Source: Marinobacter sp. (GTDB taxonomy: Bacteria > Pseudomonadota > Gammaproteobacteria > Pseudomonadales > Oleiphilaceae). From it: a stretch of 64,000 bases of DNA. Position 1 is the first letter of the stretch. Each line of letters starts with the position of its first letter. Where the stretch lies: contig JAGPVT010000102.1 in assembly GCA_018066865.1 (NCBI GenBank), positions 1 to 64,000 of the forward strand, written 5' to 3'. The position numbers were made by a program, and so were the translations under genes. Shown piece by piece: positions 9,029 through 11,146 of this stretch. The notes under the pieces were generated by a model. The model was not told where the DNA came from. It did not search any database and saw only the letters and a program-made list of their open reading frames with translations.

Positions 9029-10102
9029 TTATTGCTCCAGAGCTTCTTCCTGTTCTACCCGATCTCTTCCTCCCGCCTTACCACGATACAGAGCTCTGTC
9101 TGCGCGACTGATAACAGAACCTCGATCGTCGTTTTCACACATTTCGCTCACACCAATACTGATGGTAACTTCAATAGGTTCACCTGTAGTGGCCGCCCAA
9201 TCATGGCTGCGAAGCGCATTCCTTATTCTCTCTGCACTTGCCAGCGCACTCTCGATTCCAGTATCCGGAAGAATGACGAGAAACTCCTCACCACCCCAAC
9301 GCGCAACAATATCCTGGGTTCGCAACTGAGTCGGGATAAGCCACCCAATCTCCGCCAGAATTTTGTCCCCCATTTCATGGCCGTAGTGATCGTTGATTAA
9401 TTTGAAATGATCAACGTCCAGCAACATGAAAGCCACTGGATGCTTGGACCGGCGGAAACGAGCGATTTCCTTTTCAGCCAGATCGCTGCCATGGTGGCGA
9501 TTGAACAGCCCTGTCAGCGAATCAACGGTAGCCAATTTTCGAAGCTCACGCTGCGCCGATACCACCATGTTCATATAAAAGAATGACAGGTAGGCGAACA
9601 TCGCAAATACGATGCTCAGATTGAACAAGTGAACGCCGAGCAGAGCCCCGGATGAAATCGGCTGAACAGGCTCGATAAACCACATGAGAATATCGAGCCC
9701 TACGTAATAGCTCCAAAGCCCCACTATCAGAAAAAAAATCGTACTAACACGCACCGAACTGACGCACAGAGCCGGGATGAACATCAGCAGGTAATAGTGA
9801 AAGCCGCTATCCCATCCGATCATTATGGTCCCGAGCGCCGAGTGAACAATCACCTCAAGCCAGATCAGCCCAATAGCCAGACGATTCTGCCGGCGTTCAA
9901 GAGCATAAAAAGCGGCCGCATACATAGCGACACTGGCGACGTTTATCCATGCCAGAATGGGCGATCCGAGAAAATGAAACAGGAAGAAAAAAGAAATATC
10001 GACAGTCGCTGCAAGCAGACACACCCGACGGGAAACCTGCCAGAATTTCAGCCCACGCTCACGCCGTGATGCAGGGTTCACAGTGCTATTATTATTATCC
10101 AT
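9029..10102 (-). CDS. Membrane-bound diguanylate cyclase (GGDEF) with intact active site and I-site
   Basis: N-terminal TM helices; DSLTGLFNRHHG, RTQDIVARWGGEEF (RxxD + 5 + GGEEF); start assigned to ATG 10102 (MDNNNSTVN). Confidence 0.85.
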   Translation of the reverse strand: MDNNNSTVNPASRRERGLKFWQVSRRVCLLAATVDISFFFLFHFLGSPILAWINVASVAMYAAAFYALERRQNRLAIGLIWLEVIVHSALGTIMIGWDSGFHYYLLMFIPALCVSSVRVSTIFFLIVGLWSYYVGLDILMWFIEPVQPISSGALLGVHLFNLSIVFAMFAYLSFFYMNMVVSAQRELRKLATVDSLTGLFNRHHGSDLAEKEIARFRRSKHPVAFMLLDVDHFKLINDHYGHEMGDKILAEIGWLIPTQLRTQDIVARWGGEEFLVILPDTGIESALASAERIRNALRSHDWAATTGEPIEVTISIGVSEMCENDDRGSVISRADRALYRGKAGGRDRVEQEEALEQ

Positions 10103-10313
10103 ATACTGCAAATTCCTCTGCAACAGAACGATCTGTGCCGCCTGAAATGCTGCCATTATGATCCCGGGCAAAAACCAAGGAGCATAAAACTTGGTTACAG
10201 GTATATTCGCGCATGACTTTAGCACAAAAGTGCAACTCTGAATCCTTTTCGACAGACTTGAAGTCACTACCTACTCACACATCAGAAACATCCATTGACT
10301 ACCCCTTTAACTC

Positions 10314-10346
10314 GCAATAAGATACATAACGTATGAATCTTATTGC
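10314..10346. promoter_or_regulatory. 33-nt imperfect inverted repeat, candidate operator (NsrR/Rrf2-like spacing)
   Basis: GCAATAAGAT-A-CATA-ACG-TATG-A-ATCTTATTGC, 14 of 15 arm positions pair, in divergent intergenic region. Confidence 0.5.
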
Positions 10347-10353
10347 CACCAAA

Positions 10354-10367
10354 AAGAGATATCTCTT
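10354..10367 (+). promoter_or_regulatory. Perfect 14-nt palindrome immediately before the CCGGCS peptide start codon
   Basis: AAGAGATATCTCTT directly followed by ATG at 10368. Confidence 0.4.
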
Positions 10368-10544
10368 ATGACACAGTTATTTAAAGAAGTGACCAGCCCC
10401 AAAACCAGCGATAGAACGGAGACTGAAGAACTCAAAGACGAGACCGCTGAGCAAGCCGTCAAAGCGTCCGAAAGCACCGACAAAGAAACTGTAAAGAAGG
10501 GTAAACACGGAGATCCAGGCGTTTGCTGCGGTGGCTGCTCTTAA
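10368..10544 (+). CDS. 58-aa small protein ending in CCGGCS (CCGSCS-motif-like; possible metal-binding or RiPP-type peptide)
   Basis: My translation: MTQLFKEVTSPKTSDRTETEELKDETAEQAVKASESTDKETVKKGKHGDPGVCCGGCS*; absent from ORF track because <60 aa. Confidence 0.75.
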   Translation: MTQLFKEVTSPKTSDRTETEELKDETAEQAVKASESTDKETVKKGKHGDPGVCCGGCS

Positions 10545-10633: not shown

Positions 10634-11146
10634 TCAATGATCCATCTTGTGCCCGGAATGATCCATTTCCTGCTCTTTCATATCAGCGTCCAAGGACTGT
10701 ACGCTCAACTCGACTTCAACAGCCTCCGCACCTTCAAATTCCAGAACCAGGGGAATCGTCTCGCCTTCTTTAAGCGGCTCCGTGAGCTTTTCAAGCATTA
10801 AATGATAGCTCAGAGGTTTGAGCTCCACCGCCTCTCCGGCCGATATTGCCAACCCGTCCTTAAGCGGCTCCATGCGCATAACACCGTCTTTCATTAGCGT
10901 TTTATGCATTGAAACATGATCCGCTCTGGGCGTACTTGCGCTGATCAAAGTGACATCCCTGTCGCTGTGATTCCTGATAACCAGATAACCTACACCCATA
11001 GGAGTGCCTGGCGGCGTCGGCCGGCTCCACGGATGCTCAATAGCAACGCTGCCGTGAGCGTGCTCACTGGCCGTCACAGCCGTGGCAAGGAACGATGTGA
11101 CCAGCAGTGCGTTACTGACCAACAGAAGTGTGATTAGTTTTTTCAT
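10634..11146 (-). CDS. Copper chaperone PCu(A)C family periplasmic protein
   Basis: Signal peptide; WSRPTPPGTPMGVGYLVIRNHSDRDVTLISASTPRADHVSMHKT...MRMEPL; His/Met-rich tail DHSGHKMDH. Confidence 0.9.
   Translation of the reverse strand: MKKLITLLLVSNALLVTSFLATAVTASEHAHGSVAIEHPWSRPTPPGTPMGVGYLVIRNHSDRDVTLISASTPRADHVSMHKTLMKDGVMRMEPLKDGLAISAGEAVELKPLSYHLMLEKLTEPLKEGETIPLVLEFEGAEAVEVELSVQSLDADMKEQEMDHSGHKMDH

What the first reader, a model, noticed from the sequence alone, without database searches (positions are those of the whole stretch)
10368..10544. Unlisted 58-aa peptide ending in CCGGCS: candidate modified or metal-binding peptide
Seen directly: ATG-initiated ORF MTQLFKEVTSPKTSDRTETEELKDETAEQAVKASESTDKETVKKGKHGDPGVCCGGCS*. 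The first ~45 residues are charged and low complexity with no aromatic after F5, and all three cysteines sit in the last six residues. That leader-plus-Cys-core layout is typical of RiPP precursors or thiol/metal-binding tails. From memory it resembles a family named for a C-terminal 'CCGSCS' motif in marine gammaproteobacteria; I cannot verify this. No modification enzyme (radical SAM, MNIO/DUF692, YcaO) is visible in this window, so maturation, if any, would be in trans.
Basis: partly seen in the sequence, partly recalled or inferred. Interest (0 to 1): 0.85.

Follow-up and report, generated by a model that had tools for sequence, protein, structure and literature searches.

The report
Nitric-oxide-switched cysteine-tail peptide in Marinobacter
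A small gene in the marine bacterium Marinobacter makes a 58-amino-acid protein with a three-cysteine tail, and it carries the DNA switch of the nitric-oxide sensor NsrR, so this family of unknown function is probably part of the cell's defence against nitric oxide.

Summary
It is under strong coding constraint. The tail KGKHGDPGVCCGGCS is nearly frozen (dN/dS about 0.02), while the charged linker drifts. I found it only in Marinobacter: 35 of 125 genomes, in three gene neighbourhoods. No modification enzyme travels with it. The RiPP reading is therefore not supported, though not excluded.

The new result is its regulation. A sigma-70-type promoter (10295-10323) is overlapped by a 23-bp inverted repeat, AAGATACATAACGTATGAATCTT (10319-10341). 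This matches the binding site of NsrR, the nitric-oxide-sensing Fe-S repressor. A matrix built only from E. coli NsrR sites ranks it first in the window. All 34 intact homologues carry such a box, and the one truncated homologue lacks it. A strict box occurs 13 times in 125 genomes, 10 of them before this gene. NsrR is encoded in the genome.

Best reading: an NO-induced cytosolic thiol peptide whose H-G-x4-C-C-G-x-C-S tail binds metal or nitrosyl-iron. The regulation is well supported; the chemistry is inferred.

The parts
10295..10323 (+). sigma-70-type promoter: -35 TTGACT (10295-10300), 17-nt spacer, -10 TAAGAT (10318-10323)
   Evidence: the TTGAC element lies 18 nt (17-19) before the box in nearly all homologues
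10319..10341 (+). NsrR box AAGATACATAACGTATGAATCTT (11-1-11 inverted repeat) overlapping the -10 element
   Evidence: E. coli-derived NsrR matrix: 18.65 bits, best site in the window, next 10.96; the only zero-mismatch site of its kind in the genome; equivalent box in 34 of 34 intact homologues
10351..10359 (+). ribosome-binding-like stretch AAAAAGAGA
   Evidence: sequence directly
10368..10544 (+). 58-aa CCGSCS-motif peptide gene (TIGR04101), single gene between divergent and convergent neighbours
   Evidence: homologues; coding constraint
10368..10394 (+). conserved N-terminal segment MTQLFKEVT (possible docking segment)
   Evidence: dN/dS about 0.10 in context A
10395..10493 (+). variable charged linker, residues 10-42
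   Evidence: dN/dS about 0.26; lowest confidence part of the AlphaFold2 model
10494..10541 (+). conserved tail KKGKHGDPGVCCGGCS (residues 43-58), candidate His/Cys metal or nitrosyl-iron ligand set
   Evidence: dN/dS about 0.02 in context A; H47, G48, C53, C54, G55, C57, S58 conserved across all three contexts
9029..10267 (-). divergent neighbour: GGDEF diguanylate cyclase (context only)
   Evidence: PF00990; syntenic in context A only
10634..11146 (-). convergent neighbour: PCu(A)C copper chaperone (context only)
   Evidence: PF04314; syntenic in context A only

Best explanation
The gene encodes a small, probably disordered cytosolic protein of family TIGR04101. It is kept off by the Fe-S repressor NsrR, which sits on a box overlapping the -10 element, and it is switched on when nitric oxide destroys the NsrR cluster, for example during denitrification or under nitrosative stress. 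Well supported here by sequence and comparison: the family, the coding constraint, and the NsrR-type operator conserved across species and across three gene neighbourhoods. Inferred: derepression by NO. Inferred with less certainty: the conserved tail H-G-x(3-5)-C-C-G-x-C-S, tethered by a variable charged linker to a conserved N-terminal segment, is the working end. It would capture iron (as a dinitrosyl-iron thiolate), another thiophilic metal or NO equivalents set free by nitrosative damage, and buffer them or hand them on. My estimates: NsrR control about 0.93; metal or nitrosyl-iron binding by the tail, given that control, about 0.5.
For: A matrix from 22 NsrR sites listed for E. coli CFT073 (PMC5320621, Table 4) scores the box 18.65 bits, first in 64 kb and about 0.35 expected per Mb at random. 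Homologues score 16.5-29.4 bits; 34 of 34 intact genes have the box, and the one truncated gene (G635) lacks the box, promoter and N-terminus. The box is kept in three unrelated neighbourhoods at a fixed distance from the -35. A strict box pattern occurs 13 times in 125 genomes: 10 before this gene, the rest before nnrS (with divergent sirB), a hemerythrin/Fe-S ORF and a CZB chemoreceptor. nnrS and the hemerythrin-type dnrN/ytfE are core NsrR targets in PMC1274295. An NsrR-like Rrf2 protein with a three-Cys motif is in 122 of 125 genomes and in all carriers. 73 of 121 nsrR loci carry such a box, always within 1 kb upstream and never elsewhere in the scanned stretch, including this genome (17.8 bits), which implies autoregulation. 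Carriers have cytochrome cd1 nitrite reductase domains more often (25 of 35 against 31 of 90, p = 0.0003; tree-aware test p = 0.02). His and Cys residues of the tail are conserved.
Against: No expression, binding or peptide data exist here. The NsrR-like protein scores below the NCBIfam NsrR cut-off (142 against 182 bits). The left half of the box overlaps the -10, so part of its conservation may be promoter conservation. Ten carriers, including all five ELB17-type genomes, lack cd1, so the role is not tied to NirS denitrification. Nothing direct shows that the tail binds metal; the profile search of PDB sequences gave only chance-level matches and the model is low confidence. The cd1 association rests on a single-gene nsrR tree.
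Confidence: 0.62

Rival explanations
1. RiPP precursor: the conserved N-terminus is a recognition leader and the CCGGCS tail a core modified by a trans-acting enzyme (MNIO, radical SAM, YcaO), with NO inducing the product.
For: Conserved N-terminal segment, variable middle and invariant Cys core; Cys-rich cores are typical of MNIO substrates (own knowledge).
Against: No modification enzyme is shared between the three contexts. MNIO is absent from this genome and 34 of 35 carriers, and is if anything depleted. SPASM proteins are not enriched, and seven carriers have none. YcaO was not tested.
Confidence: 0.12
2. Thiol redox or S-nitrosothiol carrier: the vicinal cysteines reduce or trans-nitrosylate targets without binding metal.
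For: NsrR-type regulation and a vicinal Cys pair plus a third nearby Cys.
Against: No thioredoxin-like fold or other Pfam domain, and no partner enzyme in the neighbourhood. The conserved His-Gly and terminal Ser are not needed for simple thiol chemistry.
Confidence: 0.2
3. Small protein modulator: the N-terminal segment docks on a partner (respiratory, iron or denitrification protein) and the tail signals NO or metal status.
For: Both ends conserved and linker free to drift; low-confidence model compatible with disorder.
Against: No partner identified; neighbours differ between contexts.
Confidence: 0.2
4. The box is bound by another Rrf2-type regulator such as IscR, so the gene answers Fe-S status rather than NO.
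For: Rrf2 proteins share related sites, and a second, IscR-like Rrf2 protein is encoded (35.5 bits).
Against: The same box precedes nnrS, a hemerythrin-domain gene and the nsrR operon itself, and the E. coli NsrR matrix fits it.
Confidence: 0.06

Closest known systems
NCBIfam TIGR04101 'CCGSCS motif protein'
   Same: Length, N-terminal segment and Cys tail; 49.2 bits over a cut-off of 28.
   Different: This member ends CCGGCS, not CCGSCS. The family name carries no function; regulation by NsrR is proposed here.
NsrR regulon of gamma-proteobacteria (hmp, ytfE/dnrN, hcp, nnrS; PMC1274295, PMC5320621)
   Same: A 23-bp 11-1-11 inverted repeat overlapping the promoter, an NsrR-like regulator in the genome, and co-occurring sites at nnrS and a hemerythrin-domain gene.
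   Different: The target is a small Cys-tail peptide, which is not among the targets in the passages of those papers that I read.
MNIO-modified RiPPs (methanobactin, TglA and bufferin type)
   Same: Short precursor with a C-terminal Cys core.
   Different: No MNIO gene in this genome or in 34 of 35 carriers.
Bacterial metallothioneins
   Same: Small, Cys- and His-bearing, probably metal-binding.
   Different: Only three Cys and one conserved His; no Pfam metallothionein match.

Membership tests
TIGR04101 CCGSCS motif protein | Profile score above the curated cut-off | tested here: met
   49.2 bits against 28
TIGR04101 CCGSCS motif protein | Short protein ending in CCG[SG]CS | tested here: met
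   58 aa ending CCGGCS; CCGGCS and CCGSCS both occur among relatives
NsrR regulon member | NsrR-type 11-1-11 box in the promoter | tested here: met
   18.65 bits with the E. coli matrix, best in window, overlaps the -10
NsrR regulon member | Regulator present in the same genome | tested here: met
   Rrf2 protein, 142 bits to NF008240 with Cys motif, in 122 of 125 Marinobacter genomes; below the curated cut-off of 182
NsrR regulon member | Box conserved in front of orthologues in different species and contexts | tested here: met
   34 of 34 intact genes, three contexts
NsrR regulon member | Derepression by NO or by loss of nsrR | not testable with these tools
   needs RNA or reporter data
RiPP precursor | Modification enzyme encoded nearby or co-occurring | tested here: not met
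   none shared between contexts; MNIO in 1 of 35 carriers; SPASM not enriched
RiPP precursor | YcaO cyclase in the genome | not tested
RiPP precursor | Mass shift of the native peptide | not testable with these tools
   needs LC-MS
Metal- or nitrosyl-iron-binding peptide | Conserved ligand residues | tested here: met
   H47, C53, C54, C57 conserved
Metal- or nitrosyl-iron-binding peptide | Measured binding | not testable with these tools
   needs purified peptide

The most novel reading that the evidence does not exclude
TIGR04101 is a new kind of NO-defence effector: a disordered peptide made on NO demand whose H-G-x4-C-C-G-x-C-S tail traps dinitrosyl-iron or released iron from damaged Fe-S clusters and passes it on for repair.
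Probability: 0.3. Interest if true: 0.78.

Novelty: new variant of a known kind. Interest (0 to 1): 0.6.

Why it matters
The name TIGR04101 carries no function. Placing the family under NsrR gives it an inducer, a regulator and a phenotype to look for, so the open question becomes directly testable. If the tail traps nitrosyl-iron or released metal, it would add a dedicated peptide buffer to the known NO defences (Hmp, YtfE, Hcp, NnrS) in marine bacteria, many of which make NO themselves during denitrification.

Tried and rejected
Co-occurrence with MNIO was tested and not found; SPASM radical SAM likewise. A class-wide DNA pattern for the tail was void: I wrote 12 free positions instead of 13, so it could not match even the window. 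It is not used as evidence. Weak family hits in other genera (L004-L009) showed no CCGxCS tail with a family-like N-terminus and are noise. Two sub-cut-off Marinobacter hits (G703, G708) showed neither tail nor box. A profile search of PDB sequences gave only chance-level matches; the AlphaFold2 model is low confidence (pLDDT 55) and was not used for fold search. No plasmid match and no viral-contig relative. No Rfam element. No paper in the library mentions CCGSCS, and none holds both ELB17 and NsrR. The RegPrecise database could not be consulted and may hold an earlier prediction of this site.

Full report
OBSERVATION. The 58-codon ORF lies at 10368-10544 on the + strand exactly as reported. 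It matches NCBIfam TIGR04101, 'CCGSCS motif protein', with 49.2 bits against a curated cut-off of 28, and no Pfam family. In this member the last motif reads CCGGCS; both CCGGCS and CCGSCS occur among relatives.

DISTRIBUTION. Above-cut-off members are in 35 of 125 Marinobacter genomes. In an even sample of 387 genomes of the class the window's own genome was the only hit. In 248 genomes of the order only Marinobacter passed the cut-off. A motif-limited scan of 85,488 species genomes returned ten loci, all Marinobacter, including strain ELB17. No plasmid matched and no viral contig encodes a relative.

ANATOMY AND CONSTRAINT. Three segments evolve differently. In context A, residues 1-9 have dN/dS about 0.10, residues 10-42 about 0.26, and residues 43-58 about 0.02 (synonymous sites are near saturation, so the ratios are approximate). 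M1, the position-5 aromatic, H47, G48, C53, C54, G55, C57 and S58 are conserved. The AlphaFold2 model has mean pLDDT 55, which fits a flexible peptide but proves nothing. No signal peptide is evident by eye, so I take it as cytosolic.

NEIGHBOURHOOD. Three contexts were found. Context A, as in the window, lies between a divergent GGDEF gene and a convergent PCu(A)C gene (Pfam). Context B is the ELB17 type. Context C comprises the shorter, about 53-aa members. No partner gene is shared between the contexts, and in the window the gene stands alone.

THE SWITCH. Upstream lies TTGACT-N17-TAAGAT (10295-10323), overlapped by AAGATACATAACGTATGAATCTT (10319-10341). NsrR, the NO-sensing Fe-S repressor, recognises an 11-1-11 inverted repeat (PMC5320621), and the enterobacterial core is gATGyAT-N5-ATrCATc (PMC1274295). 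I built a matrix only from 22 E. coli CFT073 sites printed in PMC5320621 (Table 4). It ranks this box first in the window at 18.65 bits, the next being 10.96, with about 0.35 such hits per Mb of random sequence. With the same matrix 34 of 34 intact homologues have a box of 16.5 bits or more, nearly all 17-19 nt after the -35. The one homologue without a box (G635) is a truncated remnant that has lost the promoter and N-terminal half together.

SPECIFICITY. In this genome the degenerate box occurs once with no mismatch, here, and once with one mismatch, upstream of a CZB-domain chemoreceptor. Across 125 Marinobacter genomes the strict pattern AANATNCATNNNNNATGNATNTT occurs 13 times. Ten are in front of this gene. 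The others precede nnrS (divergent from sirB), an ORF with hemerythrin and Fe-S domains opposite an Fe-S-assembly-domain ORF, and the same chemoreceptor. nnrS and dnrN/ytfE are core NsrR targets (PMC1274295). An NsrR-like Rrf2 protein with a C-x6-C-x5-C motif is present in this genome (G000:C135:7666-8103), in 122 of 125 genomes and in all carriers, although its score is below the curated NsrR cut-off (142 against 182 bits). In 73 of 121 nsrR loci a box of 17 bits or more lies within 1 kb upstream of nsrR and none lies elsewhere in the scanned stretch. In this genome it is at 17.8 bits, in front of a small ORF-DUF454-nsrR series. This autoregulatory arrangement ties the motif to this regulator.

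DENITRIFICATION LINK. Cytochrome cd1 (PF02239) domains occur in 25 of 35 carriers and 31 of 90 non-carriers (Fisher p = 0.0003). A Pagel-type test on an nsrR tree gives p = 0.02, with about 11 changes of the peptide gene on the tree. This is supportive but modest: a single-gene tree, and ten carriers without cd1.

RiPP HYPOTHESIS. MNIO (PF05114) is in 16 of 125 genomes, absent from this one and present in only one of 35 carriers. SPASM radical-SAM domains are common in the genus and not enriched in carriers: 28 of 35 against 80 of 90. YcaO was not tested. Together with the lack of any shared neighbour this makes a dedicated modification system unlikely, though not impossible.

MECHANISM. Shown by sequence and comparison: family, constraint, and a conserved NsrR-type operator on the promoter. 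Inferred from established NsrR biology: repression without NO, derepression with NO. Inferred more weakly: the His-Gly and three-Cys tail binds iron, nitrosyl-iron or another thiophilic metal liberated by NO, with the N-terminal segment as a docking site. No experiment in hand bears on the last step.

VERDICT. The family is known by name, but that name carries no function. The NsrR regulon assignment, which I did not find stated in the papers I could search, moves it from an orphan motif to a testable NO-response effector.

Noticed in passing
G000:C109:6783-6805 (L048, L038); also L062:1501-1523: NsrR-type box upstream of a CZB-domain (zinc-binding) methyl-accepting chemotaxis protein in two Marinobacter genomes, which suggests NO-controlled chemotaxis.
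   Followed up: partly
L047:6936-8103 (G000:C135): NsrR-type box in front of a small membrane-like ORF, a DUF454 ORF and nsrR, beside moaA; a box in this position is common across the genus (73 of 121 loci).
   Followed up: partly
L065:422-1477 and 1711-2553 (G714): NsrR-type box between an ORF combining a hemerythrin domain with SdhB-like 2Fe-2S/4Fe-4S domains and an ORF with an Fe-S assembly (PF01883) domain.
   Followed up: partly
L071:278-1989 (G745): NsrR-type box between divergent nnrS and sirB genes.
   Followed up: partly
window 10354-10367: Perfect inverted repeat AAGAGATATCTCTT directly before the start codon, overlapping the ribosome-binding stretch; largely kept in the closest relative (L025) but not in the family.
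   Followed up: no
L199 / L036 (G635:C69): Truncated homologue keeping only the tail MKGKHGDPGACCGGCS; promoter, NsrR box and N-terminal half are gone.
   Followed up: yes
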